From Phytohabitans rumicis (GTDB lineage Bacteria > Actinomycetota > Actinomycetes > Mycobacteriales > Micromonosporaceae), in the NCBI RefSeq assembly GCF_011764445.1, contig NZ_BLPG01000002.1, forward strand, positions 434,001 to 498,000: 64,000 nt of DNA, written 5' to 3'. The position numbers were made by a program, and so were the translations under genes. Numbering within the stretch: the stretch's first letter is position 1; every line of letters starts with the position of its first letter. Below are positions 5,682 through 57,286 of the stretch, piece by piece. Under the pieces are notes generated by a model that saw nothing but the letters and a program-made list of their open reading frames with translations, was not told the origin of the DNA and searched no databases.

Positions 5682-5778
5682 CGATCAAGGATTTCCGTGT
5701 CGATCAAGGGCGAAAGGTCGTGGATCGGAGATCAAACCACGGCCGTTCGCCCTTGATCGGCGGCAAGAGGGGCCGGGC
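5682..5778 (+). repeat. 97-bp palindromic intergenic repeat, copy 1
   Basis: The element reads A (5682-5700), B (5701-5723), loop (5724-5736), B' (5737-5759), then a decayed A'. A and B both open with CGATCAAGG. B and B' pair over 23 bp with two mismatches, giving a strong hairpin. The loop is ATCGGAGATCAAA, the same subtype as copies 2 and 5. It sits between the hydrolase 3' end and the kup 5' end. Confidence 0.88.
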
Positions 5779-5797
5779 GCGGGGCCCGGCGGTGGGG

Positions 5798-8128
5798 CTA
5801 GGCGTCGTCGTCTTGGACGGTTAGTTGGCCGTAGGCGTCGCCTACCGCGGCGCCGGTGACGGCCTTGACGGCGACGACGTACGACCGGGTGTCACCGGCC
5901 TGCGTGTTGCCGGTCACCTGGATGGGGATGGCGATGGTGGTGCTGCCCGGCGGGACCGACACCACGCTCGCCGACGCGACGCCGGTCAGCGGGTCCACCA
6001 CGAACACCCGCACCTGGCCGTTGCCGCTGCCGGTGACCCGCGCCGGCACCTGGTACGTCGTGGTCCCGGAGTTGCCCTCCGCGACGGTCAGCTCGCCCAG
6101 GTCGACGCGCGGCAGGGACAGCGGCTGCGGCGCCGGCAGGCCGGGCCGCCAGCCCCAGGCGTCGATCAGCCAGATCCGGGTCCAGGTCTGGCCGGTACGC
6201 GGGATCAGCTCCAGCGTCGCGATCTGGGCCAGGTTGAGGCCGGCCGCCGTGGCGTTGGTCAGCGGCATCCGGATCTCCTGGGCCCACTCCGAGTTGGTCT
6301 GCGTCGGGTACGGCAGCGCGTCCAGGGTCGCGCTGCCGAGGACCGCCCGCCGGCCGGCCGAGTCGGTGATCGCCACGTCGAGGCCCACGCCCGTGTTGTT
6401 TCCGGCCAGGGCGACCCGCAGCGCCACCTGCTGGGCGTTCGAGATGGAGACCGGCACCGGCGGCCGGATCGTCACCGGCGTGCCCGGCGCGTCCCAGTTC
6501 ACCTGGACGGCGTACCGGCCGGCCTCCGGGCGGATCCGCTCGAACCGCGCGAAGTGCGGCGACACCGAGCTGTCACAGGTGGTCGGGCTCGAGTCCGTGG
6601 TGGCCACCTGCTCGCACAGCCGGCCGCCGGTGCCACTGACCACGGTGGACGCGTCGGGCACCACCAGGCGCGTCCGGTTGGCGCCCGCGGCGTCGCTGAG
6701 CACGACGGCCGGGTCCACCGAGGGCGCGCGCACGCCCGAGCCGTCCAGCAGCGGGCGTACCTGGTCGTTGCCGGCCACGAAGGTGGCCGCGGCCGCGGCG
6801 GCGTAGGTGGCGCCGACCTTCTGCTGCTGGTCCGGCGTCAGCCGCAGCGGCGAGACCGCCCGGCAGGTCGGGTCGTGCGGGCTCGGGTAGTCGTCGAACG
6901 ACGGTGCCGCCGAGAGTCCCGGCGTCCACTCGGTGTTGAAGTAGTTGTGGTTGGCGCCGATCACGTAGATCGCGCCGTGCAGGGCGAATCCGCGGCTCAC
7001 CGCGCGGGTCGCGTCGACGTACAGCTGCCCTTCCAGGTCGGAGATGTCCCCGTCGCAGCCGGGCAGGATCGTCATCGACGGCACGTCGGGGGCCGGGTTC
7101 TGCCCGTTGATGGTCGGGCCGATGAGCGCCAGGCCGCGGATCTGCCAGCGCACCGTCCCGGTGTACCCGTCCTGGCCGGCCGGCGGCGGGGTGAGGCTGT
7201 CGACGGCGGCGCGGCTGACGCCTTCCCCGCCCCGGGAGTGGCCGACCAGCAGGACCCGGGTCATGTCGGTCACCGGGGCCGACCGCACGATGGCCGGGGC
7301 GCTGGGACGGCCCGAGCCGGCCCAGTCGGCCCAGCGCGCCAGGTGCGTGCGGACCAGCGACGAGCGGGCCTGCGCACCGCCGTCCGCGGGTGGCAGGCCG
7401 ACGCCGTCCTGGGCGTTGATGCCGTTCGCGGAGATCGACACGGTCACGTATCCCTGCGAGGCCAGCAGCTGCTGCGCCCGCTGGTAGCCGCGGTAGCTGG
7501 GCAGCGAGGTCCAGCCGGCCGGGCACGGCCAGGCCAGCGTCGGCTCCGCGGTGCCCTGGTAGCAGGTGGCGTGCCGGCCGTGCAGGAAGAGCACGAGCGG
7601 CCGCGACCCGGACGTGCCCTGCGGGGCGATGACCAGGCCGCGCATCTCCACCGGCGCCGGGAACCCGGGCAGAGGCACGTCGGACAGGGCGTACTCGCCG
7701 GAGATGGTGGAATACGGACCGGCCACGCCCGGATCGACCGCGTTCGGCGGCAGTTGAGCCGCCGCCAGGGCCGGCTGCGCGGTGCCCGCGCGCGGCGCCG
7801 CCGCCTCGACGTCGAGGCGCCGCCCGCCCGCGTGGACCTGCAGGTCGGTCAGGCTCCGCCCGGCGACGCCGTCGACGCTCAAGTGGAAACCGCGCTGGTC
7901 CGGCTCCGCCGACGGTCGGCCCAGCAGCCGGTCACCGGCGTAGAACTCGACCATCGCGTCGCCGATCGGCACCCGCTTCGGCGCGTGCCAGCTCACTTCG
8001 TACCCTGTCGTGGTTTTGCGCAGCTCCCAGCCGGCCGGCGGATCGGGATCCGCCTGTGCGGCGCTGCCGCCGCCGATCACCAACGCGAGTGCCAACCCAG
8101 CCGTCATCGCGGCTCTGCCGACGCGCAT
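5798..8128 (-). CDS. Secreted alpha/beta hydrolase with C-terminal beta domain
   Basis: The ATG preceded by GGGGGAGG gives a clear Sec signal peptide (MRVGRAAMTAGLALALVIGG, cleavage after AQA). The mature protein has an alpha/beta-hydrolase core with LFLHGRHATC (oxyanion region), the nucleophile elbow VGHSRGGEGV and a late histidine motif (ANHNYFNTEW). The last roughly 120 residues resemble a Calx-beta or similar Ig-like extracellular domain (LGELTVAEGNSGTTTYQVP, ending TVQDDDA). At 776 residues it is likely a secreted esterase or lipase; the substrate is unknown. It appears monocistronic. Confidence 0.82.
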   Translation of the reverse strand: MRVGRAAMTAGLALALVIGGGSAAQADPDPPAGWELRKTTTGYEVSWHAPKRVPIGDAMVEFYAGDRLLGRPSAEPDQRGFHLSVDGVAGRSLTDLQVHAGGRRLDVEAAAPRAGTAQPALAAAQLPPNAVDPGVAGPYSTISGEYALSDVPLPGFPAPVEMRGLVIAPQGTSGSRPLVLFLHGRHATCYQGTAEPTLAWPCPAGWTSLPSYRGYQRAQQLLASQGYVTVSISANGINAQDGVGLPPADGGAQARSSLVRTHLARWADWAGSGRPSAPAIVRSAPVTDMTRVLLVGHSRGGEGVSRAAVDSLTPPPAGQDGYTGTVRWQIRGLALIGPTINGQNPAPDVPSMTILPGCDGDISDLEGQLYVDATRAVSRGFALHGAIYVIGANHNYFNTEWTPGLSAAPSFDDYPSPHDPTCRAVSPLRLTPDQQQKVGATYAAAAAATFVAGNDQVRPLLDGSGVRAPSVDPAVVLSDAAGANRTRLVVPDASTVVSGTGGRLCEQVATTDSSPTTCDSSVSPHFARFERIRPEAGRYAVQVNWDAPGTPVTIRPPVPVSISNAQQVALRVALAGNNTGVGLDVAITDSAGRRAVLGSATLDALPYPTQTNSEWAQEIRMPLTNATAAGLNLAQIATLELIPRTGQTWTRIWLIDAWGWRPGLPAPQPLSLPRVDLGELTVAEGNSGTTTYQVPARVTGSGNGQVRVFVVDPLTGVASASVVSVPPGSTTIAIPIQVTGNTQAGDTRSYVVAVKAVTGAAVGDAYGQLTVQDDDA

Positions 8129-8253
8129 CGACGTCCTCCCCCGTGTATTCCGTTGTGGTCGGGGCGCGCCCACCGCTTCGGGAGCGCTCCCACGCCCGCC
8201 GATTCTAGGCGCCGGCGCGCACACCGATCAATGCCGATGAGCTCAACGGACGG

Positions 8254-8350
8254 CGATCAAGGACTTTCCCGCCGATCAAGGGCAAACGGTCGTGGATCCG
8301 AGATCAAAGCACGACCGTTCGCCCTTGATCGACGCGGGAGTCCTTGATCG
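8254..8350 (+). repeat. 97-bp palindromic intergenic repeat, copy 2 (complete)
   Basis: This is a full copy with all five modules: A 8254-8272, B 8273-8295, loop 8296-8308, B' 8309-8331 and A' 8332-8350. The outer pair CGATCAAGGA/TCCTTGATCG and inner pair CGATCAAGGGC/GCCCTTGATCG are nested. The A' end is followed by further degenerate CGATCGACGCGG copies. It occupies most of the gap between the RHS 3' end and the hydrolase promoter; no gene is seen in that gap. Confidence 0.92.
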
Positions 8351-8377
8351 ACGCGGGAGGCCCGATCGACGCGGACG

Positions 8378-11300
8378 TCACAGGGTCTCGCGCCAGCGGA
8401 CGCTCTGCTTGGTCCAGTGCTCCAGCGGGGCCGCGTCGTGCCCGTCGCCGGCGTTGCCGTCCTTGTAGGTGAAGACCTTCGCCGGGTTGATGCTGCCCGA
8501 TGCCTGGGTCGAGGCGTTGGTGAGGTTGAACTCGACCACCCATCGGGCGTCCTGGTCGATGCCCACGACCTTCCAATTCAGCTCGTACGAGCCGAGGAAC
8601 GCCTGCGCCAGCGGCATCCCGAACTGACCGTAGGTCAGGACCGACGTCAGGTTGTCGATCGCGGAGCGTGCGCGCTCGCGCGGCGACTGATGCGCGTAGC
8701 GGAACGGCTGCTCGTCCTCGAAGATACAATTCTCGATCTTCGATCGGATGATTCCGCGGGCGGCGGCGACGTGGGGCAGTGCCTGGATCAGCGTCGTGAA
8801 GTAGTCGCCGTCGCGGAAATACTCGATGTCGTAGCAGGAGTAGTTCGGCCCGGGATGCGGCAGGAGCGGCATCACGGTGGCAAGACCGCAGCCTTGCGCC
8901 TCGGCCTGCACCCACTGCAATCCCAACTCGTACGGCCCGAGGTTGTTGGAACCCGGTGGGTTGCAGTACTCGGGGGTGGCGTCGGAGCAGGTGGGCGGCG
9001 CGGGGATGCCGAACTGGGCGCCGCACGGGGGCTTGCCGAGGGCGGCCACCGCCCCCAACAGGCCCCCTGCATGATCGCCCCGCCAATCCCGGCCACGGCC
9101 ACGCCGACGGCCTCTCCGATCGCCGCGCCGGCCTCGTCACCCAGGGTCGGCACCAGCTGGCCGATCAGCTCGCCCAGACCGCCGAGCACGTCCGGGAACG
9201 GCCGGGTGCCCTGCGGATCGACCATGTTTACCGGGTCGTTGTCGGCGTACGCGTACGGGCTTGTCACGTCGCCTTCGCCGAGGCGCGCCACGACCGGGTC
9301 CCGGGTACGGAACCGGCCGATCGTCGGGTCGTACGTGCGGGCGCGCAGGTAGACGATCGAGTCGAAGGCCAGTTCGCCACGGTAGCCGAAGCGCGGCGTC
9401 CAGGCATCGTCCACATTGGGCTGACCGAAGGCGTCGAAGGCCGACGCCCGCGCCCACGCCGCCGTCTGTTCCGTACGGATGGTGGAGCCGAAGGCGTCGC
9501 GGGCGAAGGTCGCCGAGCCGCCGTCCGAGTGTGCGAACAGCCGGCTGTACCCGTAGACGAAATCCGCGTCCCGTTCGCCGTTGTCGTTGCCGCCGTCGAC
9601 CTCCACGCGCTGGGTGAGGATCTGCGGCGTCGGCTCGGCCACGTTCCACCGGTACCGGAATGTGCGCCGGCGCTCGGGCCGCTGCCGCCCGAGGTCCGTC
9701 AGGACAAGGCGGGCGAGCAGGCCGTCACCGTCGTAGGTCGCGTCGACCGTGCGGGTGCGGCCGGCGTGGCCGCCGGGTCCAAAGTGGTCGATCCGGACCG
9801 GCAGGCCGAACGCGTCGTACCCGATCGTGAGCCGGCCTTCCGGCCCCACCTGCTCGACCAGCCGACCCAGCTCGTCATGTCGATAGGTCACCCGTTCGGC
9901 CCACCGTGGTCGGCGTCGTCCGCGCGGTCGCGATCCCGGTCCGTCTCCGCGGCCTGGATCTGGTCCGCCGCGTCGTAGCTGAGCCGGGTGGTGGTGCGGC
10001 GGCGGCCGATCCTGGTCCGGTTGCCCGCCGGATCGTACGCGCAACGGAGCGTGCCGTCGGGCTGGCCGGTCGCGGATATCAGCTGTCCGGCCGGGTCGTA
10101 CTCGAAGCGCTGCTCACGGCCGTGCTCGGTGACGGCGACGATCCGGCCGTCGGCGTCCCGCGCGACGACCGCGTCGACCTGCGTGCGCTGGCCGCGCCGT
10201 TCCTCGTACCGGGCCAGCAGGCCGCCCGCGTCGTACCGGTAGTGGCGGGACCAGCCGTCCGGCAGCCACTCGTGCAGCAGGCGACCGGCGGCGTCCAATG
10301 TGTACTCGACCGCGCCGGCCAGCGGGTCCCGCAGCCAGATCAGCCGGTCGTTCGGGTCGTAACGGTAGTCGACCTTCAGGCCGTTCGGGTACTGCAACGC
10401 GACCCGCCGGCCGGCGGCATCGTACGTCCACGACAGCACGGACGAGTCCGGACCCACGACCGTGAGGAGCCGCCCGGCCGGGTCGTACGCGTACCTGGTG
10501 GTGCCCGTCTGGTCGGTCATCAGCGTGCGGCGACCGAGCGCGTCGTGCTGGAACGACACCTCGGCCGCGCCCTCGGCGAACCGGCGCACGAGGTTCCCCG
10601 TGAGGTCGTACGCCATCCGCACCATGGCCCCGGTCGGATCGGTGACGGCGGTCAACCGGTCGCCGCCGGTCGGGTCGGTTCGGGAGATCACCCGGCCGGC
10701 GGTGTCATAGGCCGTACGCCAAAGGGCCCCGCTCGCGTCGATCCGCACCGTCATCCGGTCGGCGTCGTCGTACTCGTACCGGGTGGTGCCGCCGGCCGCG
10801 TCGACCACCTCCACTACGTTGCCCCGCGCGTCGTACCGCATGGACTCGGCGCCGTCCGGGCCGCCGACGCCGTTACGCCGGCCCGCGCCGTCGTAGGTGT
10901 ACGTCGTCACGATGCCGGTCGGGTCGGTCACGCTGGTCAGCCGGTCCAGGTCGTCGTAGGCGTACGTCACGACGCCGCCGGACGCGCTCGTGGCGGTGGC
11001 GAGCCGGCCCGCGCCGTCGTACCCGTAGCTCGTCGTCCCGCCCAGCTCGTCGACGCGGGCGACCAGGCGATCCTCGGCGTCGAACTCGTGGTGCCTCACC
11101 GCGCCGCTCGGGTCGGTGCTGCTCAGCAACATCCCCGACGCGGTGTACGCGTACTGCGTGACCCCACCGGTCGGATCCACCGCCGCGGCCAGCCGGCCGG
11201 CGGCGTCATAGCGGTAGCGCGTGGTCGCGCCCAGCGGAGTGATCACCGCGGCGTGCCGGCCCGTCGCGTCGTACTCGTGACGGGTCGTGTCCCCGGCCGG

Positions 11301-12539
11301 GTTGGTCACCGCCACGAGCCGCCGGCCGCTGTCGTACTCCAGCGTCGTCTTCGCACCCTCGGCGTCGATCACCTCGGTGATCAGGTCGTCCACCACGGTC
11401 AGCCGGGTGGTCGCACCGGTCGGATCGACGACCCGCGACGGCAGTCGGTTGCCGGCGTCATAGGCGTGCCGGATCACGGCTCCCGTCGGATCCGTGCGGC
11501 TCGTCACCCGGTCCTGTTCGTCATAGGAGTACGCGGTGACGCGACCCCCGTCCGTCTGGCGCAGGACGTTGCCGCGCGGGTCGTACGTCCGGGTGAGCAG
11601 CCGCCCGTCCGGCAGCTCGACCGCGGCCAACCGGCCGTCGCCGTCGAACACCTGCCGACGAGCGCGTCCACTCTGATCCACGACGGCCAGCAACCGGCCA
11701 TCGGCGTCGTGCCGGTACGTGCTCCGGGTGCCGCCGGGCGCGACCGTGACGGTCGTGACACCGTCGCCGCCGTAGTCTAAGTCCAGCGTCCGGCCCCCGA
11801 AGCTCTGCCGCGCCACCTGCCCCGAGGCGTCGTACGCGGTCACGACGGCGTCCCGCCCGCCCGGGTCGACCACCCGCTCGAGCTGACCGGCCGGCGTCGT
11901 CACGTACCGGCTCACCCCACCGTCCGCACCGGTCACCGCGGACAGCACACCGGCGTCGGTGTAGCTGTACGTGACGATGCGCCCGTCCGAAGCCTCGGCG
12001 GCGGCCAGCCGGCCCGCGGCATCGTAGGACAGCCCCAACCGGTGGCCGGTCGAGTGCGCGGCGGACACGAGGCGGCCGGCCGGGTCGTACTCCAGCGCGA
12101 GGCGGCCGCCCTGGCCGGCACGCTCGGTCACCCGCCCCGATGCCGCGACCGTCCACGTCTGTCCTGATCGGAACCGCAGCCGGAAACCGTCGCCGTCGTG
12201 GCTCAGGTCGGCGTCCAGATCGGCCGGCCGCCGGTAGCCGTCGCCGTCCGGCGCGAACGTGAGGACACGCCCGTCGTCGTCGTGGAACTGCACCGCGCCC
12301 TCCTCCTGCACGGCGAGGTGGGCACTGAGTGAAGCCGTCCACCCCACACCGAACAGGCGGCCCGTGAGGTCCCGCGAATTGTACGTGCGCCCCCACACCA
12401 GCAGCGCCACCGGAAATCGAAGGTCGGTTATCGCCTTGGTGTAGTTGCCGATCGCCGTGTTGACGCCGTCACCGGCGAAGCCGCAGCTGACATGCGCGCC
12501 GAACAATTCCACAGCCGGCCGCGCGAGCAATGATGTCAT
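8378..12539 (-). CDS. RHS/YD-repeat protein with unusual C-terminal domain, two frameshifts
   Basis: A DUF6531-type N-terminus (GDGVNTAIGNYTKAITDLRF) is followed by about 25-30 YD repeats (YDAAGRL, YDPAGNRT and similar). The chain ends in the RHS core signature YLRARTYDPTIGRFRTRDPV...YAYADNDPVNMVDPQG. Two single missing bases split it: C3 at 9900-9902 and C5 at 9063-9067. Restoring both yields about 1387 residues. After the core comes a glycine/alanine hydrophobic hinge and a roughly 230-residue cysteine-containing tail (CGAQFGIPAPPTCSD to SVRWRETL) that I do not recognise. RHS proteins form a shell that encloses a variable C-terminal toxin or effector. No signal peptide, PAAR domain or downstream immunity gene is present. 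Confidence 0.85.
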
Positions 12540-12642
12540 GAGTTTTCCCCGTGCCTCAGGCCATCAGAAAAGCGAAGGCTATCAATTGACCACAAGGTCG
12601 TTCAACGTATTGACGCTTTTACGACCCGCGCGGTTCCCGCGT

Positions 12643-12739
12643 CGATCAAGGACTTTCGCGTCGATCAAGGGCGAATGGCCGCGGAAAAGAGATCCAACCA
12701 CGGCCGTTTGCCCTTGATCGACGCGAAAGGGGCCCTGGC
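12643..12739 (+). repeat. 97-bp palindromic intergenic repeat, copy 3
   Basis: A (12643-12661), B (12662-12684), loop AAAAGAGATCCAA (12685-12697) and B' (12698-12720) are well kept. A' retains only its first half, ACGCGAAAG. It lies in the divergent promoter region between the RHS and TIR-NTPase genes, 65-100 bp from either start, so it could affect transcription of both. The rest of this 264-bp gap shows no gene. Confidence 0.9.
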
Positions 12740-12803
12740 GCGGGGAAAGGCGTGTCGCTAAGTGGACAGTGGGGTGTCGGGCGCGGGTGGTGGGCGGTAC
12801 GGC

Positions 12804-19569: not shown

Positions 19570-19663
19570 GAAAGGTATGGTCTCCGCTCTCCGGCCACAA
19601 ATCACCGTCCCCGGCACCGGAAGAACTCGCCTTCTGTTTAGCACCACGTGACAAAATTGACGA
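19570..19663. promoter_or_regulatory. Divergent promoter region, aldolase operon / pucR-type gene
   Basis: These 94 bp carry the outward promoters of the aldolase-kinase operon and the PucR-like regulator. They are noticeably more AT-rich than the flanks. A GAAG-N7-CTTC dyad lies near the centre. PucR-type activators usually bind such divergent regions, so control of the operon from here is likely; the exact operator is not resolved. Confidence 0.5.
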
Positions 19664-42900: not shown

Positions 42901-42997
42901 CCTCGCCCTTCCCCTCGTCGATCAAGGGCATATGGTCGTGCTTGGATCTCTTTTCCACGGCCGTTTGCCCTTGATCGGCGAGAAAGTCCTTGATCGG
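42901..42997 (-). repeat. 97-bp palindromic intergenic repeat, copy 4 (inverted)
   Basis: B (42920-42942), loop (42943-42955), B' (42956-42978) and A' (42979-42997) are kept; the left outer arm is decayed. The loop TTGGATCTCTTTT is the exact reverse complement of the copy 3 loop, showing that the element inserts in either orientation. It begins 22 bp after the ADP-ribosylglycohydrolase stop and could act as a terminator for it. Confidence 0.88.
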
Positions 42998-43065
42998 CGC
43001 TCGCCTCGCGGTGGCGGCGCGGCGCACGGCCGACCACACACGCTTGCGACCGGACGTCCCCTGAC

Positions 43066-43132: not shown

Positions 43133-43195
43133 TGGGCCCGCCCAACCCCGCTCGGCGCGACCCGCTCCTCGTTCCCCGCTCGCCGCCACCCCCGT

Positions 43196-43292
43196 CGATC
43201 AAGGACTTCGGCGCCGATCAAGGGCAAAGGGTCGTGGATCGGAGATCGAAGCACGGCCGTTTGCCCTTGATCGACGGGGAGAGCGGGGCAGG
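43196..43292 (+). repeat. 97-bp palindromic intergenic repeat, copy 5
   Basis: A (43196-43214), B (43215-43237), loop ATCGGAGATCGAA (43238-43250) and B' (43251-43273) are intact; the last outer arm is decayed. The loop belongs to the subtype of copies 1 and 2, whereas nearby copy 4 belongs to the other, so the pair did not arise by local duplication. Confidence 0.88.
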
Positions 43293-43394
43293 AAGGGGCG
43301 GGCGGGCGGAGGAACGGCGGAGGAATGGCGGAGGAGTCGGTGGGCGGGGGCGCACGGGGACGTGGGGATCGATTGGAGCCGATATGATTTCGGG

Positions 43395-45332: not shown

Positions 45333-45336
45333 CGCA

Positions 45337-46185: not shown

Positions 46186-46191
46186 CTACGG

Positions 46192-47453: not shown

Positions 47454-47460
47454 CCACCAG

Positions 47461-47477
47461 ACCGTAGGCGCTACGGT
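47461..47477. promoter_or_regulatory. Symmetrical bidirectional leaderless promoter
   Basis: ACCGTAG-GCG-CTACGGT is a perfect inverted repeat whose two ends are each a TACGGT (TAnnnT) -10 facing outward. On the plus strand, 6 nt separate it from the mmcQ-like ATG; on the minus strand, 7 nt separate it from the GTG of the hypothetical gene. Both transcripts would be leaderless and in competition for the same DNA. A repressor could also bind this palindrome. Confidence 0.6.
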
Positions 47478-47483
47478 ACGAGA

Positions 47484-47876
47484 ATGGCCACTCTGGAAGA
47501 GACGGCCCGGCTCGCGCTGGCGCTGCCCGAGGTCTCCGAAGGCGAACGGCACGGCCACCGGACCTGGTCGGTTGCCGGCAAGGGGTTCGCGTGGGAGCGA
47601 CCGTTCAGCAAGGCGGATATCCGGCGATTCGGCGACGAAGCGCCGCCGGAGGGCCCGATCCTGGCGGTCCGGGTCGAGGACCTCGGGGAGAAGGAGGCGG
47701 TGCTCGCCGCGCAACCCGCGGCGTTCTTCACGATCCCGCACTTCAACGGGTACGCGGCGGTCCTCATCCAGCTCCGCAAGGTCACCAAGGCGGCGCTGCG
47801 CGACGCGCTGGTCGACGGCTGGCTGGCCTGCGCGCCGCCGAAGCTGGCCGACGAGTTCCTCAAGGGACGCTCGTGA
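47484..47876 (+). CDS. MmcQ/YjbR-family DNA-binding-fold protein
   Basis: The 130-residue protein begins [19 protein letters not shown] and has the MmcQ/YjbR (CyaY-like) pattern: [58 protein letters not shown] and a [14 protein letters not shown] end. Family members are small, often called DNA-binding, with little proven function. The mRNA is probably leaderless. Its TGA overlaps the serpin GTG (GTGA). Confidence 0.85.
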
Positions 47877-49078: not shown

Positions 49079-49469
49079 GGGCGCGGACCAGGTAGGCGCC
49101 GCCGCCCAGGGTGAGGGCGAGGCCGACCGCGAGGGCGGCGTAGCCGGCCCAGGCCGGGCCGTCGAGGGCCGCCGAGTCGCCGCGCACCCGCAGGGTGACC
49201 GGTGCGCCGGTGGACTGCGCGTCCCGGCCGAAGTCGACCGACGCGGTGCGCTGCCGGGCCCCATCCGTCCAGGTCACCACGCAGTCATAGTGAATGCGCC
49301 GGTCGCGGCCGGTGCCCACCCAGTCGGTCGTGCACGACTGCACCGTGCCGGTCGCCGTGGGCCAGGTCCGGCTCACCGTGAGCTGGACGCCGGTGACCAG
49401 CACGATCACGCCAACGAAGACCGCGACGAAGCCCGCGGCCCGCTTGAAGAGCCGCCGCGGGTCGATCAT
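49041..49469 (-). CDS. DUF3592-like two-span membrane protein
   Basis: The 142-residue protein has a membrane helix near each end (AAGFVAVFVGVIVLVTGVQL and WAGYAALAVGLALTLGGGAYLV) around an extracytoplasmic beta domain. That domain contains two cysteines (VQSCTTDWVG, YDCVVTWTDG), probably forming a disulfide, and VDFGRDAQSTGAPVTLRV. This is the DUF3592 arrangement. The function is unknown. It overlaps the serpin gene tail to tail. Confidence 0.72.
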   Translation of the reverse strand: MIDPRRLFKRAAGFVAVFVGVIVLVTGVQLTVSRTWPTATGTVQSCTTDWVGTGRDRRIHYDCVVTWTDGARQRTASVDFGRDAQSTGAPVTLRVRGDSAALDGPAWAGYAALAVGLALTLGGGAYLVRALTLAIRARRRAR

Positions 49470-49517
49470 GGCGCTGACGTTAGGGCCCGCCGGTGGCGCT
49501 GTCGTCGGGCGTAAGGA

Positions 49518-50399
49518 TTAGCCGCGCTGGTCGGCCAGGCGGCGTTCACGGGCCGCCTGGCGGGTGGCGACCCGCGACAGGTTGCGCAGCACGGCGTCCA
49601 TGAGGCGGTCGAAGGCGCGGTCGGGCAGGACGCGGCGGGCCGCCAGGATCGGCTTGGCGCCGCGGCCCACGGCGTACCGGGTGCGCGGGCGGCGCGCGGT
49701 GGCGGCCTTGGCGACGGCGTTGGCGATCACCGATGGCGGGGACGCCTGCCCGGTCGGGTCGGCCATGAAGAACGCCGCCGCCCGCTCGGCCTGGTCGGCG
49801 TACGCGCCCTGGCCGGAGGTGGCGAGCAGGTGCTGGCCGGCGATGCCGGACCACTCGGTGGCGATCGCGCCGGGCTGGATGACGACCACGTGGATGCCGA
49901 GCGGGGCGAGTTCCATGCGCATCGAGTCGCTGAGCCCTTCGACGGCGAACTTGGTGGCGTGGTACCACCCGCCGAGCGGCTCGTAGATCTTCCCTCCGAT
50001 GGAGGAGATGTTGACGATCCGGCCGGAGCCCTGCCGGCGCATGTGCGGCAGGACGAGCTGGGTGAGCCGGGCCAGGCCGAACACGTTGACCTCGAACTGG
50101 CGGCGGGCCTCGTCCAGCGGCACGTCCTCGACCGCGCCGTACGAGCCGTAGCCGGCGTTGTTGACCAGGACGTCGACCCGCCCGGACTCGGCGACGACCT
50201 GCTCGACGAAGCCGACCATGGAGGCGTCGTCGGTCACGTCGACGCGCACCGGGCGGATGCCGACCTCGGCCAGCGGGGCCATCCGGTCCACCCGGCGGGC
50301 GGCGGCGTACACGGTGAAGCCCTGGGTCCGCAGCTTGCGGGCGGTGGCCTCGCCGATCCCCGAGGACGCGCCGGTCACGATGGCAACTTTGTCAGTCAT
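49518..50399 (-). CDS. SDR-family NAD(P)-dependent oxidoreductase
   Basis: The 293-residue classical SDR has the cofactor motif TGASSGIG, NNAGYGSYG, catalytic Ser in IVNISSIGGK, and the YHATK catalytic pair. A roughly 60-residue C-terminal extension contains basic residues. The start is the second Met, with GGGGAT 5 bp upstream. It would oxidise or reduce a hydroxyl or carbonyl group on an unknown substrate. It is divergent from a TetR regulator and its upstream DNA contains an AACTAGTT palindrome, so TetR control is likely. Confidence 0.9.
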   Translation of the reverse strand: MTDKVAIVTGASSGIGEATARKLRTQGFTVYAAARRVDRMAPLAEVGIRPVRVDVTDDASMVGFVEQVVAESGRVDVLVNNAGYGSYGAVEDVPLDEARRQFEVNVFGLARLTQLVLPHMRRQGSGRIVNISSIGGKIYEPLGGWYHATKFAVEGLSDSMRMELAPLGIHVVVIQPGAIATEWSGIAGQHLLATSGQGAYADQAERAAAFFMADPTGQASPPSVIANAVAKAATARRPRTRYAVGRGAKPILAARRVLPDRAFDRLMDAVLRNLSRVATRQAARERRLADQRG

Positions 50400-50410
50400 C
50401 AGATCCCCAT

Positions 50411-50473
50411 CCAACTAGTTGGTTACCCCAGTGTCGACACCCACCCGCCCGTTGTCAACTAAACAGTTAGAAT
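50411..50473. promoter_or_regulatory. TetR operator pair and leaderless tetR promoter
   Basis: CCAACTAGTTGG (50411-50422) is a perfect 12-bp palindrome next to the SDR start. A related AACT-AAAC-AGTT repeat (50457-50468) lies beside the regulator gene and runs into TAGAAT (50468-50473), a -10 seven nt before its ATG. The shared AACT/AGTT half-sites suggest that one regulator binds both and represses both genes. Confidence 0.6.
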
Positions 50474-50480
50474 CCGGATC

Positions 50481-51022
50481 ATGCCGCGCGACTCCACCGC
50501 CACCCGGGCCCGGATCCTCGACGCCGCGACCGCCGAGTTCGCCGCCTACGGGCTGGCCGGCGCCCGCGTCGACCGGTTGGCCGAGCGCGCCGGCGCCAAC
50601 AAGCAGCTCATCTACGCGTACTTCGGCGGCAAGGAGAAGCTCTTCGACGCGACCCTCGAACGGCACATCGAGCAGCTCCTCGACGCGGTGCCGTTCACCG
50701 CCGACGACCTCCCGGGTACGCCGCGGCGCTGTTCGACTTCGGCGTGGCCCACCCGGAGCTGGTGCGGCTGCTGCGCTGGCACACCCTCGAACGCCCCGGC
50801 GAGCTGGCCCGGCTGGAGCAGACCATGGGCTCGACCGCGCGCAAGCTGGCCGCGCTGGCGCAGGCGCAGGAGGCCGGCAAGGTGGACGCCACGCTCCCGC
50901 CGGCCGAGCTGCTGGCCGTGATCGTCAGCCTGGCGCAGGCCGTCGACGACCCGGCCCCGGCGGCCCTCGCCGTACGGCGGGAGACGGTGGCGACCACCGT
51001 ACGGCGGCTGGTCACGCCGTGA
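50481..51022 (+). CDS. TetR-family transcriptional regulator, one frameshift
   Basis: The N-terminal HTH is clear (TRARILDAATAEFAAYGLAGARVDRLAERAGANKQLIYAYFGGKEKLF is the family pattern). One base is missing in the G3 at 50714-50716, after which the frame continues GYAAALFDFGVAHPELVRLLRWHTLERPG to the natural end. The restored length is about 180 residues, typical for TetR. It is divergent from the SDR gene, with palindromic operators between them, so it is the likely autorepressor and SDR repressor. The mRNA is probably leaderless. Confidence 0.85.
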
Positions 51023-51029
51023 CGGCCGG

Positions 51030-52312
51030 CTACTTCGGCGGCTCGGCGGAGGTCCAGGCCGGCAGCGGGAGCGGCCGGTCCAGCAGGAACGACCGCAGCA
51101 GGCTCAGGTACAGCTCCGGCCGGTCGCTGGAGATCGCGTGGCCGGCACCCTTGACGTACACCAGCGTGGCCCGCGGCAGCGTGCGCTTGTAGTCGTAGGT
51201 CACGGCCCACTTCTTGTAGTCGCCCTCGGCGCGGACGACCAGCGCCGGCACGGGTACGGAGCGCAGCGCCGGCCGCGGGTCCGGCACCTGCTCGGCGTCC
51301 AGGCTGGTGTACTGGTTGACCCAGAACCCGGCCGCGTTGTCCGGGGCGTGCAGCGGCGGGGCACCCGGGTACTGGGCGGCCGGCGCGGCGGTCAGCAGGA
51401 TCTGGCGCAGCAGCTCGTCGGCCTCGGCGTCGCCGAGCAGCGCGTGCGCGGCCCGCGGGTTGATCGCCTGTAGCAGCGTGGCGGCGATGAAGCGAGGCCG
51501 GTACGCCAGCGCGTCGATCGCGTCCTCCTGCGCGGGCGTGAGGCGGTCCCAGATGTCGCCGGTGTTCCCGTCCGGGAACGCGCCCTCCCACAGCGCGCCC
51601 GGCGAGGTGAACACCACCCGGGCCACCCGGTCGGGGTGGGCGGCCAGGTAGTACGCGGCCAGGATGCCGCCCCACGACTGTCCGATGAGGACCACCTGCT
51701 CGGCGCCGATGGCCTGGCGTACGGCCTCCAGGTCGGCGACGTGCCGGGCGACCGTGTACCCGGTCACGTCCGCCAGCCGGGTGGAGCGGCCGGCGCCGAG
51801 CTGGTCGTACTCGTACACGTCGAACCCGTCGGCGGCCAGGGCCCGGCCGGTGGCGTCGATGCCGTCGCCGGGCGTGCCCGGCCCGCCGTGCAGGAAGATC
51901 ACCGGCGTCGGCCGGGGCGTGCCGCGCGCGGGCGCCTTCGTGTACGCCAGACGCGAGCCGGTGGGCAGGTCCCAGTAGCGGGTGCCGGGCGGCGCGGGCA
52001 CGGCGGTGGCGGTGGCAGCGGCTGGAAGACCGTCACGGCCGCGAGGCCCGCGGTGGCCAGCGCGAGGACGCCGGCCAGCACGCCGGCCGCGCGGAACGGG
52101 CGGCGGCCGGGGCGCAGCAGCGCGAACACCGGCCAGCCGAGCAGGAACGCGACGGCGGCCAGCGCGGCGAGGCCGGCGGCGGACAGCAGCGGGATGGTGG
52201 CGGTGGCCGCGGCGGTGCCCAGGAACGCCAGGGCGCCCGCGCCGAGGGCCAGCGGGACGGTCAGGAGCAGCAGCATGCCGCCGGCGGTGCGGCGGAGAAG
52301 GGTGCGTGGCAT
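51030..52312 (-). CDS. Membrane-anchored alpha/beta hydrolase, one frameshift
   Basis: An N-terminal membrane part of three or four helices (MLLLLTVPLALGAGALAFLG, IPLLSAAGLAALAAVAFLLGW, GVLAGVLALATAGLAAVTVF) runs through a proline linker into an alpha/beta hydrolase of the proline iminopeptidase/haloalkane dehalogenase type. The hydrolase has FLHGGPGTPGD, the nucleophile in IGQSWGGIL and a GAGHAISSD histidine. One base is missing at about 52002-52006, inside the linker; restored length is about 427 residues. Without restoration the hydrolase could still start at a GTG (52001). The substrate is unknown. Confidence 0.78.
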
Positions 52313-52423
52313 GTGGACCACGCTATGCGGACGAAACAGACTTTCCGTCCTTCCGTGGGACGGTTCTCCGGCGCCTCGGAACACCCGCGCGGCGGGCCCG
52401 CTCCCCCGCCGTACGGCGGGGTG

Positions 52424-53077
52424 TCAGCGCACGCCGGGGCGGATCAGGCCGGCCTCGTACGCGGCGATGGTGGCCTGCACGCGGTCCCGGACGCCGAGCT
52501 TGCCGAGGATGACCGCGACGTGGTCCTTGACCGTGGCCGGGCTGATCCCGAGCGCCCCGGCGACCTCCACGTTGGACAGTCCACGCGCGACCTGGCGGAG
52601 CACGTCCGTCTCCCGGGGGGTGAGCGCGGCCAGCCGTTCGGCGTCCCCCGGGCCCGGACCGGCCGCGAACCGGTCGATCAGCCGCCGCGTGACCCCCGGG
52701 TCGAGCAGCGCGTCGCCGCCCGCCACCACCCGCACCGCGTCGACCACCCGCTCCGGGTCCGCGTCCTTGAGCACGAACCCGGCGGCGCCGGCCCGCAGCG
52801 CGGCGAAGACGTACTCGTCCAGGCCGAAGGTGGTCAGCACCACCACCCGGGTGGCCGGCACCTCGGCGATGATCCGCGCGGTCGCGGTCAGCCCGTCGAG
52901 GCCCGGCATCCGGATGTCGAGCACGGCCACGTCCGGCCGCAGCGCGCGGACCTGCGCCACGGCGGCCGCGCCGTCGGCGCTCTGCCCGACCACCTCGATG
53001 TCGGGCTCGGCGGCGAGCACGGCCGCGATGCCGGCCCGCACAATGGCCTGGTCGTCGGCAACCAAGACACGGATCAT
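52424..53077 (-). CDS. NarL/FixJ-family response regulator
   Basis: The 217-residue protein has a receiver domain (VLVADDQAIVRAG; phospho-acceptor Asp in VAVLDIRMPG; VLTTF switch Thr; LKDA lysine) and a C-terminal LuxR-type HTH (LTPRETDVLRQVARGLSNVEVAGALGISPATVKDHVAVIL). It is encoded 7 bp after the sensor kinase gene and is its cognate regulator. Typical targets are nearby transport or stress genes; none can be named. Confidence 0.95.
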   Translation of the reverse strand: MIRVLVADDQAIVRAGIAAVLAAEPDIEVVGQSADGAAAVAQVRALRPDVAVLDIRMPGLDGLTATARIIAEVPATRVVVLTTFGLDEYVFAALRAGAAGFVLKDADPERVVDAVRVVAGGDALLDPGVTRRLIDRFAAGPGPGDAERLAALTPRETDVLRQVARGLSNVEVAGALGISPATVKDHVAVILGKLGVRDRVQATIAAYEAGLIRPGVR

Positions 53078-53084
53078 GCGCCCA

Positions 53085-55215
53085 TCATCCCGGCAGCCAG
53101 ACCGTGGCCGCCTCCGGTACGGACCGGGTGACCGCGCCGCCGGCCGCGTCTGCCAGCTCCCGCAGCCGCCCGCCGTCCATGCCGCCGCCCGGCCACGTCG
53201 CGGACAGCCGCACGCCGTCCGGCAGGTACGTCACCGCGAGCGCGCCCTCCTCCCGCAGCAGCGCGTCGGCCAGCCGGTAGCCGGCCACCTCCACCTCCCC
53301 GGGCAGCGCCCGCCGCTGCCCCGCGTACCGGATCGCGGCCCGGCGCCGGGCGGCCAGCACCGCGGCACCGGCCAGGGTGGGCGGCGGCTCGTCGTCGACG
53401 CCGTCCGCGCGCAACTCGGTCAGCAGCTCCCGCATCGCGGCGAGCCCGGCCCGCGCCCCGGCCAGCACCTCCGGCAGCCGCCCCGCCTCCGCCGCCGCCA
53501 CCGCGGCCGCCGCGTGCCGCCGGGCCGTGCCGCGCAGCCCGGCCGCGATCCGCGCCCGCTCGGCCCGCGCCGCCGCCGCGGCCTCCCCTCGGTCGCCGCC
53601 CGCCCCGCCGCGCGCCGGCCCCGCCGGGCCCGCGCCCACACCCCGAGCGCCCAGGCCAGCAGCGCGGGTACGGCCAGCACCGCCGAGAAGATCGCCCAGC
53701 CGGCCACGACGTCCCCGGTGATGCCGTTGATCAGGACGAAGCCGTCCACCGCGCCGATCGCGAGCGGCGCCGGCCAGCCGCGCCGCGGAAGGTGAGCCCC
53801 ACCGAGTACGCCAGCACGAGTTGCACCCACAGCGTGAAGATCAGCAGGTCGGTGCCCTCGTACGGGGTCCAGCCGGCCCGCTCGGCGCCCAGCCAGGCCA
53901 GCAGCACCGCCAGGTTGGCGAGCGTGGCGCGCATCGGGGCCACCCGCCGCCAGCGCAGCGGGGCGGCGAAGAGCACCAGCAGGAGCAGCAGCAGCGCGGT
54001 CCCCGGCGCGGGCCGCCCCAGCGGGTCGGGGTCGTTGCCGGGCAGCAGGCCGGCTCCGGCCGGCAGCGCCACGGCCAGCACGGTCAGCGCCCAGTCCAGC
54101 GCCGCCGGCCCCCGCCAGGCCGGCCGGCGCCCGGCCGCCGGCGCGTCCATCGGCAGGTCGGCCCGCACCGCCCAGCCGCCGTCGCGCGGGCCGGCCGCCA
54201 GGGTGCCGCCGGCCGCCTCGACCGCCCCGCGCAGTCCGGAAAGGCCCGCGCCGCTGCCCACGTCCGGCGCGGCCGCCGAGCCGCCACCGTCCACGACGGA
54301 CACGGTCAGGCGGTCGCCGTCCGGGGCGAGGCGGACGGCGACCGGGGCGCCGCCGGCGTACCGGGCCGTGTTGGTCAGCGCCTCCCGCACCACCCGGTAC
54401 GCGATCGCCGCCACGTCCGGCGGCACGGTCCCGGCCGGACGGGCGTACGCCACCTCGGGCCGCTCGGCCACCAGCGCGTCGATCCCGTCCAGCCCCGCCG
54501 CCTCGCCTTCCCCCGCTTCCTCGACCTCGATCAGGCGGTCCAGCTCGGCCAGCGCCAGCGTGCCGGCCCGCACCGCGTGGTCGGCCGCCTCCGCCGCCAG
54601 GTCCGGGTCGCCGAGCCGGGCCGCCGCGGCCGCCGACACCACGATCCCGGTCAGCCGGTGGGCGGCCACGTCGTGCAGCTCGGCGGCCAGCCGGCGGCGC
54701 TCCCCCGCCGCCGCGTGCCGCGCGATCGCCGCCGACCCCGCCGCGAACGCCGCCCGCGCGGCCCGATCGGCGCGCCTCCGCCGCCGCGAGCGCCCCCACA
54801 CCCACACCACCGCCGCACCGGCGACCGCCATCACCCCGTACCCGATGACCGCGCGGACCGACGTGGCACGGACGGCGACGGTCGCGCCGAGCGCGAGCAC
54901 CGTGGCCGCGGCGCCGGCGACCGCGCGACCGGCCGTGCGCGCGGCGGCGAGCCCGAAGAGCGCGACGCCCGCCGCCGCGAAGCCGACGGGCGCCCGCCAC
55001 CCCAGGCCCGCGCCGAGCGGCACGGCGGCCGCCAGGGTGGCCGCGAGCGCCAGGCCGGGCGCGGCGCGGCGGCGCACGAGCGCGCCGCACGCCACCGCCG
55101 TGCCGAGCACCACCAGCGCCACCCCCGCCGGGGACGCGGGCTCGTCCAGGAGTACGGGGACCACCGGCCACCAGGCGAACTGCAGCACCGCGAACGCGGC
55201 CGGGAGCCTCCACAC
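53085..55215 (-). CDS. Tandem sensor histidine kinase (second module degenerate), two frameshifts
   Basis: The first half is a full HisKA_3/HATPase kinase: four or five membrane helices, the H-box ERRRLAAELHDVAAHRL (His181), N-box REALTNTARYAGG and G-box GSGAGLSGLRGA. A second set of membrane helices (about residues 375-540) and a second kinase-like module follow. In that module the H-box reads ERARIAAGLRGTARRH, with the LHD replaced, and the N-box is lost. Single missing bases at about 53783-53795 and in C4 at 53585-53588 interrupt the gene; restored length is about 710 residues. The start is GTG. The degenerate half may be a sensory or dimer-stabilising pseudokinase. Confidence 0.82.
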
Positions 55216-55237
55216 ACCACCGATTGTCCGCCCCGCC

Positions 55238-55243
55238 TATCGT
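55238..55243 (+). promoter_or_regulatory. -10 element of a leaderless MDR-gene promoter
   Basis: TATCGT (TAnnnT) is followed by 6 nt and then the GTG start of the oxidoreductase gene. No ribosome site is visible, so a leaderless mRNA is expected. The region is only 34 bp wide and also serves the divergent kinase gene. Confidence 0.5.
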
Positions 55244-55249
55244 GAACGC

Positions 55250-56257
55250 GTGCGAGCGGTCATCCAGGATCGGTACGGTGCCCCGGACGCGCTGCGCGTC
55301 GACGACGTCGAAACGCCCGTGCCCCGCGACGACGAGGTGCTGGTCCAGGTGCGGGCCGCGTCGGTCCACCCGGACGTGTGGCACGTGGTGACCGGGCGCC
55401 CGGCCGCCCTCCGGCTGATGGGCTCGGGCCTGCTCCGTCCACAGTGTAGAGTCCCGGGCACCGATCTGGCCGGCGTCGTGGCCGCGGTCGGCGCGCGCGT
55501 GACCGGCTTCCGGCCCGGCGACGAGGTCTTCGGCGACAGCCTGCGCGGGTTCTCCTGGCGCAACGGCGGCGCCTACGCCGAGTACGCGGCCGCCCCGGAG
55601 GACGGGCTCGCGCACAAGCCCGCCAACGTCACGTTCGAGCAGGCGGCCGCGGTGCCGACGACCGGGTACATCGCGCTGCTCAACCTCCCGGCCGGCCGGC
55701 TGCGACCGGGCCAGCGGGTGCTCGTCAACGGGGCCGCCGGCGGGGTCGGGGCCATCGTCGTGCAGATCCTCAGATCGCACGGCGCGCACGTGACCGGCGT
55801 CGAGCACACCCGCAAGCTGGACCTGCTCCGGTCGTTGGGCGCCGACGCGGTCGTCGACTACACCACGGACGACTTCACCCGCGGCGACCAGCGGTACGAC
55901 CTGATCGTCGACATCCCCGGCAACCACCCGTACGCGGCCGTCCGGCGGGCGCTGGCCCCGGACGGCACGTATGTCCTCATCGGACACGACCACTTCGGCC
56001 AGGTGGGCCGGCGCTGGCTGGGCAGCCTGCCCCGGTTCGGCGGGCTGGCCCTGCGGTCGCTGTTCGCACCCCAGCTGCGCAAGGGCGAGCCGGCCAGCCG
56101 GCGCAAGAAGGAGGCGATGGCGGCCCTGCGCGGCTACCTCGAGTCCGGGGCGCTCACCCCGGTCATCGACCGCGCGTACCCCCTCGCCGAGGCGGGCGAG
56201 GCCATCCGCCACCTGGCCGAGGACGAACCCCTCGGCCGCGTCGTCCTGACGGTGTGA
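55250..56257 (+). CDS. MDR-superfamily NAD(P)-dependent oxidoreductase
   Basis: The 335-residue protein has a GroES-like domain (VIQDRYGAPDALRVDDVETPVP..., VPGTDLAGVVAAVGARVTGFRPGDEVFGD) and a Rossmann domain with NGAAGGVGAIVVQIL. It lacks the catalytic and structural zinc cysteine pattern, as in quinone oxidoreductases and related reductases. It would use NADPH to reduce an enone, quinone or similar compound. The mRNA is probably leaderless. Its stop abuts copy 6 of the palindromic repeat. Confidence 0.88.
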   Translation: MRAVIQDRYGAPDALRVDDVETPVPRDDEVLVQVRAASVHPDVWHVVTGRPAALRLMGSGLLRPQCRVPGTDLAGVVAAVGARVTGFRPGDEVFGDSLRGFSWRNGGAYAEYAAAPEDGLAHKPANVTFEQAAAVPTTGYIALLNLPAGRLRPGQRVLVNGAAGGVGAIVVQILRSHGAHVTGVEHTRKLDLLRSLGADAVVDYTTDDFTRGDQRYDLIVDIPGNHPYAAVRRALAPDGTYVLIGHDHFGQVGRRWLGSLPRFGGLALRSLFAPQLRKGEPASRRKKEAMAALRGYLESGALTPVIDRAYPLAEAGEAIRHLAEDEPLGRVVLTV

Positions 56258-56299
56258 CCACGGCCATATGCCCTTGATCGACGGGCAATCCCTTGATCG
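56258..56299 (+). repeat. 97-bp palindromic repeat, copy 6 (right half only)
   Basis: Only B' (56258-56280) and A' (56281-56299) are present; the first base follows directly after the TGA of the oxidoreductase gene. The left half is absent. Its ATATG variant in the arm matches that of copy 4. It may be a truncated insertion or a remnant. Confidence 0.8.
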
Positions 56300-56332
56300 G
56301 CGCGGGCCAGCTCACCGCCGCCCGCCCGGCCC

Positions 56333-56348
56333 CCTACCCAGGGGTAGG
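56333..56348. promoter_or_regulatory. CCTACCC-AG-GGGTAGG inverted repeat upstream of deacetylase
   Basis: These are perfect 7-bp arms with a 2-nt centre, 50 bp before the deacetylase ATG. A TACCC/GGGTA dyad of the same type (60893-60915) lies between the DUF1269 and second LuxR-type genes, so a common regulator is possible. Confidence 0.4.
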
Positions 56349-56397
56349 TCTGTGGGGCGATGCGCGGAACATGATCTACCACCTATCCTCGCTCCGC

Positions 56398-57239
56398 ATG
56401 GGGAAGATCGACGGGGGCTGCTGCGGCGCGCGTTGACGGTCGCGGCGGGGATTTCGGCGGGTGCGGCGCTCACCCGGATACCGGACCTGGTCACGTCGGA
56501 CCGGTTGCCGCTGGGCGGCGGCTACGCGCCGGCGGGTGTCGCCAGTGGATGGTCGCCGCGCGGCGGGCTGAACGTGCGCTGGCATGTGCCGACGGAGCAG
56601 CCGTTCGTGGCGCTGACGTTCGACGACGGCCCGGGGCCACAGTGGACGCCGATGGTGCTGGACGTGCTCGACCGGCACCGGGCGCCGGCGACGTTCTTCG
56701 TGGTCGGGGAGCGGCTGACCCGGCACGAGGACCTGATGCGGCACCGGATCGGCCGGCACGAGTTGGGCAACCACACCTGGGCGCACCGCGACCTGGGCAA
56801 GCTTGACGAGGCGGGGGTGCGCGACCAGCTGCTGCGTACCCACGTGGCCATCCGCCGGGTCGCCGGCTACCCGCCGACCCTCATGCGGCCGCCGTGGGGC
56901 CACCTGGGCGGCAGCACGCTCGTCATCGCCGACGAGTTCGAGTACGACGTGGTGATGTGGTCGCACCAGATGCGCGAGAAGCGGTACGCCCACAATCCGC
57001 CGGCGCAGGCGCGGGACATCGTCGACAACGTCCAGCCGGGCTCCATCGTGCTGGCCCACGACATCGGGGCCCGGCACCGCCTGGTCGCCCTCAACCAGCT
57101 CGACGCCATCCTCAATGGACTGCACCGGCGCGGCCTGCGCCCGGTCACCGTGTCCACGCTGATCGCCGCCGCCGCCGCGGGCCGCGCGTCGATCAAGGAC
57201 TTTCGCGCCGATCAAGGGCAAATGGCCGCGGAAAAGTGA
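56398..57239 (+). CDS. Polysaccharide deacetylase (NodB domain), one frameshift
   Basis: The NodB catalytic motifs are LTFDDGPGP (metal and base Asp), NHTWAHRDL (metal His pair) and RPPWG. After the ATG one base is missing, in G4 at 56400-56403 or G5 at 56413-56417; restoring it yields MGKIDGGLLRRALTVAAGISAG, an N-terminal membrane anchor or signal. The restored length is about 280 residues. The enzyme would de-N-acetylate cell-wall or extracellular glycans. The last 17 or so codons (from SIKDFRADQGQ) are copy 7 of the palindromic repeat, so the native C-terminus was probably overwritten. Confidence 0.85.
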
Positions 57240-57286
57240 TCAAACCACGACCGTTCGCCCTTGATCGGCGAGCGAGCCCTTGATCG
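57190..57286 (+). repeat. 97-bp palindromic repeat, copy 7 (complete, reaching into a CDS)
   Basis: All modules are present: A 57190-57208, B 57209-57231, loop AAAAGTGATCAAA 57232-57244, B' 57245-57267 and A' 57268-57286. The first 50 bp are translated as the C-terminal tail of the deacetylase, whose TGA falls inside the loop. The 3' end lies 31 bp before the amphi-Trp gene stop, so it sits between convergent genes. Confidence 0.92.

What the first reader, a model, noticed from the sequence alone, without database searches (positions are those of the whole stretch)
5682..57286. 97-bp palindromic element with fixed 19-23-13-23-19 modular architecture, seven copies in 64 kb
Copies at 5682, 8254, 12643, 42901, 43196, 56258 (half) and 57190 share nested inverted modules A-B-loop-B'-A'. 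A and B both start CGATCAAGG, and the module lengths are identical in the two complete copies. Two loop subtypes exist (ATCSGAGATCRAA in copies 1, 2, 5; AAAAGWGATCMAA in copies 3, 4, 7), and copy 4 is inverted. All lie between genes or at gene ends. This resembles a nonautonomous mobile or REP/MITE-type element, with seven copies in one window. No transposase is in the window.
Basis: seen in the sequence. Interest (0 to 1): 0.75.

Follow-up and report, generated by a model that had tools for sequence, protein, structure and literature searches.

The report
Repeated DNA hairpin at gene ends
Hundreds of copies of one long DNA hairpin sit mostly at the ends of genes in this bacterium, and some relatives carry hairpins with the same tip and base but different stems, which suggests a mobile element that may double as a stop signal for transcription.

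Summary
In detail: six complete hairpins and one half copy in the window; 548 pattern matches in the 10.7-Mb genome (reversed control 0). The "97-bp" layout is one of two common forms: the 59-nt core and left module A are steady (A exact in 155 of 162 copies), A' only in 79 of 162; copies without A' have on average a G-rich, T-poor right flank.

A covariance model hits 35 of 121 Micromonosporaceae genomes, its three source genomes included; the pattern hits 0 of 395 other genomes in a phylum sample. GATC in the loop holds in 105 of 105 G000, 17 of 17 G001 and 33 of 34 G032 copies, while stems differ between genomes and covary. Copies favour converging genes (51 of 102; background 203 of 1152 pairs). 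A syntenic 400-kb block of a congener has none.

No target-site duplication, Y1/RAYT transposase or U-tract was found. Best reading: a REP-like, non-autonomous element spread by an unknown mobiliser and kept where its C-rich leader plus hairpin acts as a bidirectional 3'-end signal. Termination and mobiliser are inferred, not shown.

The parts
5679..5759 (+). Copy 1: A, B, loop ATCGGAGATCAAA, B'; no A'. 38 nt of G-rich sequence separate it from the stop of the gene ending at 5798 (-).
   Evidence: z -5.07
8251..8353 (+). Copy 2: complete A-B-loop-B'-A'; beside the 3' end of the gene at 8378-9058 (-).
   Evidence: z -9.35
12640..12720 (+). Copy 3: A, B, loop AAAAGAGATCCAA, B'; no A'. Between the start of the RHS gene (-) and the likely start of the TIR/NB-ARC/TPR gene (+): a divergent place.
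   Evidence: z -9.30
42919..42999 (-). Copy 4, inverted: A lies at its right on the + strand, no A'; 40 nt after the ADP-ribosylglycohydrolase gene (41847-42878, +).
   Evidence: z -7.57
43193..43273 (+). Copy 5: A, B, loop ATCGGAGATCGAA, B'; no A', G-rich right flank.
   Evidence: z -5.34
56258..56302 (+). Half copy: B' and A' only, starting directly after the stop codon of the gene 55250-56257.
57187..57289 (+). Copy 7: complete A-B-loop-B'-A', loop AAAAGTGATCAAA; between converging genes 56268-57239 (+, polysaccharide deacetylase, whose 3' end it overlaps) and 57317 (-).
   Evidence: (z -6.96)

Best explanation
A REP-like, non-autonomous hairpin element. SHOWN: in three genomes a hairpin of about 59 nt with a stem of about 22 bp and GATC in the loop (105 of 105, 17 of 17, 33 of 34 copies selected only for the basal motif), with 548, 242 and 34 pattern matches, against 0-8 (mostly unlike) in four congeners; similar hairpins with other stems in further genera. 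SHOWN: lineage-specific positions, mostly at gene 3' ends and especially between converging genes in G000. SHOWN: G-rich right flank in the element's own orientation, so on the sense strand of most nearest genes a C-rich stretch lies between stop codon and hairpin. INFERRED: new copies come from an unidentified factor that recognises the base and/or loop, which is why stems can be replaced wholesale in each lineage. INFERRED: when transcribed, the C-rich stretch (Rho-loading-like) plus hairpin acts as a U-less, bidirectional terminator or 3'-end barrier, so copies at gene ends survive.
For: Copy number and controls. Range. Loop. Stem covariation: in G032, whose 34 copies were picked by the base motif alone, 353 of 442 stem cells pair, shuffle mean 290, maximum 323 in 2000. 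In a 54-sequence alignment of three genomes the covariation score is 0.228, shuffled 0.100 (0 of 500 reach it), slid partners at most 0.058. Shuffles do not correct for relatedness. Context in G000: 51 of 102 copies between converging genes against 203 of 1152 pairs (p 9e-14); right end faces a gene 3' end in 76 of 102; copies less than 1 kb apart are 17 times '- then +', never '+ then -', 8 times same strand. Best hits of 17 other genomes: 11 of 15 assignable convergent, 14 of 15 nearest ends 3'. 65 of 196 convergent 3' ends with room carry a copy, 30 of 348 tandem ends. Right-flank GC skew +0.29 beside 3' ends, +0.23 beside 5' ends, control 3' regions -0.01. Positions.
Against: Within G000 the two arms vary independently at the five variable pairs (537 of 775 paired, shuffle mean 539), so pairing is not visibly maintained there. 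In G001 the nearest gene end is 3' in 7 and 5' in 7, and 3 of 14 assignable copies are divergent. There is no U-tract, and gene ends with a copy do not lack T-run terminators more than others (convergent 7 of 65 against 14 of 131; tandem 0 of 30 against 26 of 318, p 0.15). 13 of 102 G000 copies lie between divergent genes. Some model hits in other genera lack GATC in the loop (4 of 17) or GATCWAGG at the left base (7 of 17), so they may be other hairpin classes. No RNA data; no mobiliser found. G002 to G005 group together (RNase Y tree, 100% support), so loss in that clade could explain the G003 comparison, though not the G001 differences.
Confidence: 0.5

Rival explanations
1. A purely selfish element that inserts next to gene 3' ends because that is harmless, with no function for the host.
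For: Pattern matches run from 548 to 0-8 between congeners; positions are lineage-specific; T-run terminator make-up does not differ where a copy sits; arms vary independently within G000.
Against: Orientation bias (nearest neighbour: right end to a 3' end 63, left end to a 3' end 17; 17 against 0 head-to-head pairs), and convergent placement with the same flank skew in other genera with unrelated stems, more than mere safety seems to need.
Confidence: 0.27
2. A DNA-level site: the repeated CGATCAAGG motifs, about 19 bp apart, bind a chromosome-organising protein or gyrase where positive supercoils gather between converging genes, as proposed for enterobacterial BIMEs (recalled).
For: In G000 each arm obeys the same degenerate sequence independently of the other, as for a double-stranded recognition site; convergent enrichment; motif units recur in tandem beside some copies.
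Against: Stem covariation in G032 and stem replacement between genera with base and loop mostly kept fit recognition of a folded strand better; the A module is not evident in the flanks printed for other genera.
Confidence: 0.13
3. A transcribed structured RNA whose constant loop binds a protein or another RNA, with termination only a by-product.
For: GATC in the loop nearly invariant, covariation, strong folding.
Against: Nothing at the Rfam gathering score; sub-threshold hits are mostly miRNA precursors, far below their gathering scores; hundreds of copies at many different genes.
Confidence: 0.08

Closest known systems
REP / BIME / REPIN (GTAG-tagged, RAYT-associated)
   Same: High-copy extragenic palindromes, often species-specific, mostly downstream of coding regions between convergent or unidirectional ORFs (Di Nocera 2013, PMC3733652: abstract and passages seen).
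   Different: No GTAG in the consensus; one stem of about 22 bp instead of short REP hairpins; near-constant apical GATC and base; no Y1_Tnp hit in the carriers G000, G001, G032.
CGTC-tagged REPs
   Same: No dedicated transposase known; extragenic; CGTC often lies at the base here too (CGT|CGATC).
   Different: That paper gives stems of 8-9 bp, loops of 4-5 and five phyla without Actinobacteria; here the stem is about 22 bp and the base motif is paired.
MITE
   Same: Short, dispersed, no ORF of its own seen, inverted repeats, high copy number in single lineages.
   Different: No target-site duplication seen, right end not sharp, no related full-length transposon found in the stretches read.
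U-less (I-shaped) terminators and Rho-dependent 3' ends with protecting stem-loops, as discussed for Streptomyces clavuligerus (PMC8269248, passages seen)
   Same: Stable hairpin without U-tract at gene 3' ends of a GC-rich actinomycete.
   Different: Those are described as a class of individual 3' ends; this is one repeated sequence family with near-constant loop and base.

Membership tests
REPIN/RAYT REP | GTAG tag at one end | tested here: not met
   Consensus of 162 copies has no GTAG.
REPIN/RAYT REP | Y1 (RAYT) transposase gene in the genome | tested here: not met
   PF01797: 0 hits in G000-G005 and G032; 1 of 12 genomes searched (G013, two partial matches); 5 of 14 control genomes ring.
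REPIN/RAYT REP | Extragenic, biased to gene 3' ends | tested here: met
   G001 is an exception (7 against 7).
CGTC-tagged REP | 8-9 bp stem with 4-5 nt loop and unpaired CGTC tag | tested here: not met
   Stem about 22 bp.
MITE | Target-site duplication | tested here: not met
   79 copies with A', lengths 2-6 at nine offsets: no consistent duplication beyond what the CG-rich symmetrical ends give; no formal control was run.
MITE | Terminal inverted repeats shared with an autonomous transposon | tested here: inconclusive
   A/A' act as inverted ends in about half the copies; no autonomous partner seen, but only about 1.4 of 10.7 Mb was read.
MITE | Empty sites in relatives | tested here: met
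   G003 and G001 comparisons; divergence too high to read the junctions.
Intrinsic terminator | Hairpin followed by U-tract | tested here: not met
   Scan of window 42700-57600: one hit, not at an element.
U-less or Rho-dependent 3' end signal | Stable hairpin at gene 3' ends with C-rich upstream RNA | tested here: met
   not in G001 for the 3' bias.
U-less or Rho-dependent 3' end signal | RNA 3' ends at the hairpin; dependence on Rho | not testable with these tools
   No RNA data.
IS91-type (Y2) non-autonomous element | Y2 transposase in the genome | tested here: inconclusive
   PF04986: 0 of 7, but no control genome rang either.

The most novel reading that the evidence does not exclude
A family-wide class of mobile hairpins spread by an unknown, non-RAYT enzyme that reads the base and loop of a folded strand. 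Stem sequence is therefore free to be replaced in each lineage, and the hairpin with its C-rich leader works as a portable bidirectional terminator that rewrites 3' ends across whole genomes.
Probability: 0.25. Interest if true: 0.75.

Novelty: new variant of a known kind. Interest (0 to 1): 0.55.

Why it matters
In the survey I saw (PMC3733652), a mobiliser is proposed only for the RAYT-linked REPs; the CGTC class is left without one. This family is abundant in two members of a genus (548 and 242 pattern matches) and near absent in four others, keeps GATC in its loop while stems differ between genomes, and its carriers show no Y1 transposase, so it gives a handle on what copies such orphan palindromes. 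If it terminates transcription, one repeat family supplies about a third (65 of 196) of the convergent gene ends with room in the stretches read here, one of which was chosen for density.

Tried and rejected
Target-site duplications: none seen. Extension of the palindrome into site-specific flanks: mean score 7.96 against 7.65 for swapped partners, within the range of 20 swaps. RAYT/Y1: no hit. IS91-type Y2: inconclusive. Gene between the half copy at 56258 and copy 7: a polysaccharide deacetylase. Isolated or bracketing half sites in 1.44 Mb: 47 motif hits outside complete copies, which by eye are mostly coding sequence or degenerate elements. Copies stand in for T-run terminators: not supported. 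Arms covary within G000: not supported. Plasmid and phage collections: no match for copy 7. Rfam: none at gathering score. Literature: the listings showed no paper on this family by title or abstract start; passages of PMC5217627 and PMC2267715 did not mention it; the library lacks most subscription papers. Not possible: empty sites within one species (one genome per species held).

Rows dropped before counts: of 105 complete cores in the 1.44 Mb, one search left out one that my loop rule could not orient (window copy 7) and two without a called gene on both sides, leaving 102; stretch L174 was left out as it lies inside another block; one search needed 150-nt flanks and an orientable loop (162 copies); one search used 54 hairpins, all 59 nt, so 14 of 34 G032 copies were not in it; one search had 4 of 15 G032, 2 of 17 other and 2 of 16 G001 copies without a called gene on both sides.
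Full report
WHAT IS THERE. A pattern for the two inverted arm bases matches 548 times there; read backwards it matches nowhere. The strict arm pattern gives 530 and 520 hits, control 0. Copies are unevenly spread: among the places listed for contig 1 none lies between 0.918 and 1.759 Mb (the list stops near 2.7 Mb), and sampled stretches at 1.0, 1.25 and 1.5 Mb hold none.

ANATOMY. I collected 162 distinct oriented copies with 150-nt flanks. They were selected for exact CGATCAAGG/CCTTGATCG bases 59 nt apart and for an orientable loop, so those parts are constant by construction. The left end is sharp: information rises from 0.35 to 1.6 bits at CGYCGATCAAGG. Module A is at exact spacing in 155 of 162. 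The right end is not sharp: after RCGGGAAG, 79 of 162 have A' at exact spacing; the 81 without A' have on average a G-rich, T-poor flank (G about 0.5, C about 0.25, T 0.03 rising to 0.10 over 64 nt). This skew is not a general trait of gene ends: it is +0.29 where the right neighbour presents a 3' end, +0.23 where it presents a 5' end, and -0.01 in 282 control 3' regions without a copy. So the '97-bp' unit is one of two common forms. The loop tip is the firmest part not fixed by selection: GATC is present in 105 of 105 complete cores in 1.44 Mb of G000, 17 of 17 in G001 and 33 of 34 in G032.

WHERE IT SITS. My gene calls come from a simple GC-by-codon-position caller, not an annotation; one of the two 400-kb blocks was chosen for density. 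Of 102 copies with called genes on both sides, 51 lie between converging genes, 38 tandem and 13 divergent, against 203, 758 and 191 gene pairs (p 9e-14). The right end faces a gene 3' end in 76 of 102, median distance 71 nt. As nearest neighbour, the right end has a 3' end in 63, the left end has a 3' end in 17, and 5' ends account for 22. Copies less than 1 kb apart are '- then +' 17 times, '+ then -' never, same strand 8 times, so their A ends face each other. 65 of 196 convergent 3' ends with at least 60 nt of room carry a copy, against 30 of 348 tandem ends.

RELATIVES. Congeners have 242 (G001), 8, 1, 1 and 0 pattern matches; by eye those of G004 and G002 have other interiors. An even sample of 300 family genomes gives any match in 43, but more than ten only in G000, G001 and G032. 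A phylum sample of 396 has a match only in G000 itself. G032 is a Micromonosporaceae metagenome assembly (JAHRHA01). G001 arms read GCACGYG where G000 has GGYCGYG, on both sides. A covariance model from 20 G000, 14 G001 and 20 G032 hairpins matches 35 of 121 family genomes, these three included. An 80-kb stretch of G076 held one copy. Of the best hits of 17 other genomes (those for which a locus was returned), 13 have GATC in the loop and 10 have GATCWAGG at the left base, 15 are 56-59 nt long, and stems differ; the others may be different hairpin classes. These were found with a structure model, so their pairing is partly by selection. That does not apply to G032's 34 pattern-selected copies, where 353 of 442 stem cells pair, shuffled mean 290, maximum 323 of 2000, though shuffling ignores relatedness. 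In the three-genome alignment the covariation score is 0.228 against 0.100 shuffled and at most 0.058 with slid partners. For the 17 other genomes, 11 of 15 assignable are convergent and 14 of 15 nearest ends are 3'; for 15 of the 34 G032 copies, 6 of 11 assignable are convergent and 10 of 11 nearest ends are 3'. Both groups show C-rich left (skew -0.26, -0.24) and G-rich right flanks (+0.35, +0.22). G001 differs: left +0.02, right +0.33, nearest ends 7 and 7.

MOBILITY. A 400-kb block of G003 is largely collinear with G000, aligned blocks mostly 80-90% identical; G000 has 46 copies there and G003 none. For 36 of the 46 copies, in 25 intervals, collinear flanks were found; the G003 interval is shorter in 18 and longer in 7. 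The model finds there only weak, different palindromes (at most 25.3 bits). Against G001, two G000 copies lie in an interval of about 990 nt that is 75 nt in G001, and a G001 copy has no G000 counterpart; one 3-kb unaligned interval holds a copy in each genome at opposite ends; I saw no shared site. Downstream of the RNase Y gene G000 has a copy, and by eye G001 to G005 have none in the 400 nt printed. The unrooted RNase Y tree joins G002 to G005 (100% support) apart from G000 and G001. No target-site duplication was seen. G000 to G005 and G032 give no Y1_Tnp hit, with working controls; the Y2_Tnp result is inconclusive. No transposase appears among 40 window proteins.

HOW IT MAY WORK. On the sense strand of the nearest gene the order is usually: stop codon, C-rich stretch, hairpin. 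That is the look of a Rho-type terminator with a protecting stem-loop, and where the left flank is C-rich too, of a bidirectional one. In Streptomyces clavuligerus, 3'-end mapping found stem-loop ends without U-tracts, read by its authors as I-shaped or Rho-dependent (PMC8269248, passages). No U-tract terminator was found at the elements in the scanned part of the window. This is inference: no RNA data were available, and copies do not coincide with a lack of T-run terminators.

RESULTS AGAINST. Within G000 the arms vary independently at the five variable pairs: 537 of 775 paired, shuffled 539; on the other strand 604, shuffled 601. Each arm instead follows much the same degenerate sequence, GGGCRWAYGGYCGYG. 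This fits recent spread from several master copies or a double-stranded recognition site, and weakens a claim of ongoing selection on pairing in this species.

VERDICT. Real, abundant and REP-like, with related hairpins in other Micromonosporaceae, but not a member of the tagged REP classes as tested. I file it as a new variant of a known kind, extragenic palindromic repeats, with an unknown mobiliser.

Noticed in passing
Core positions 12, 13, 15, 18, 21 of the 59-nt hairpin in G000: Four of the five clearly variable stem positions fall on every third base (12, 15, 18, 21), mostly transitions; by hand count of 14 positions the chance is about 0.005. No coding sense found.
   Followed up: partly
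Other Micromonosporaceae (for example L082, L083, G202, G272, G252) and G004: Other short palindromes share the CGATCAAGG base with different lengths (46, 56-57, 71 nt) and interiors, so several related hairpin classes may coexist in the family.
   Followed up: no
L118:6290-6338, L121:7017-7072, L121:12286-12342 (G003): TGATCAGGGACT... palindromes in the congener that lacks the element; two of the three have near-identical flanks, so a longer repeat.
   Followed up: no
L030; G000 C1 8120684-8121137: Three copies in tandem about 175 nt apart with similar flanks: local tandem duplication as one way to gain copies.
   Followed up: no
window 12762-15769: TIR - NB-ARC - TPR gene, perhaps a STAND-type immune protein. 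Its 126-bp repeats have one 125-bp step (14894 to 15019), and TPR matches lie in two reading frames: an apparent frame change inside the repeats.
   Followed up: no
window 9888-12539: RHS/YD-repeat protein of 883 aa on the minus strand next to copy 3.
   Followed up: no
window 17353-20097: Apparent fusion of a class II aldolase domain and a class III aminotransferase (914 aa).
   Followed up: no
window 47873-49078: Weak serpin match in a 401-aa ORF (E 1.8e-6, just above the family cut-off).
   Followed up: no
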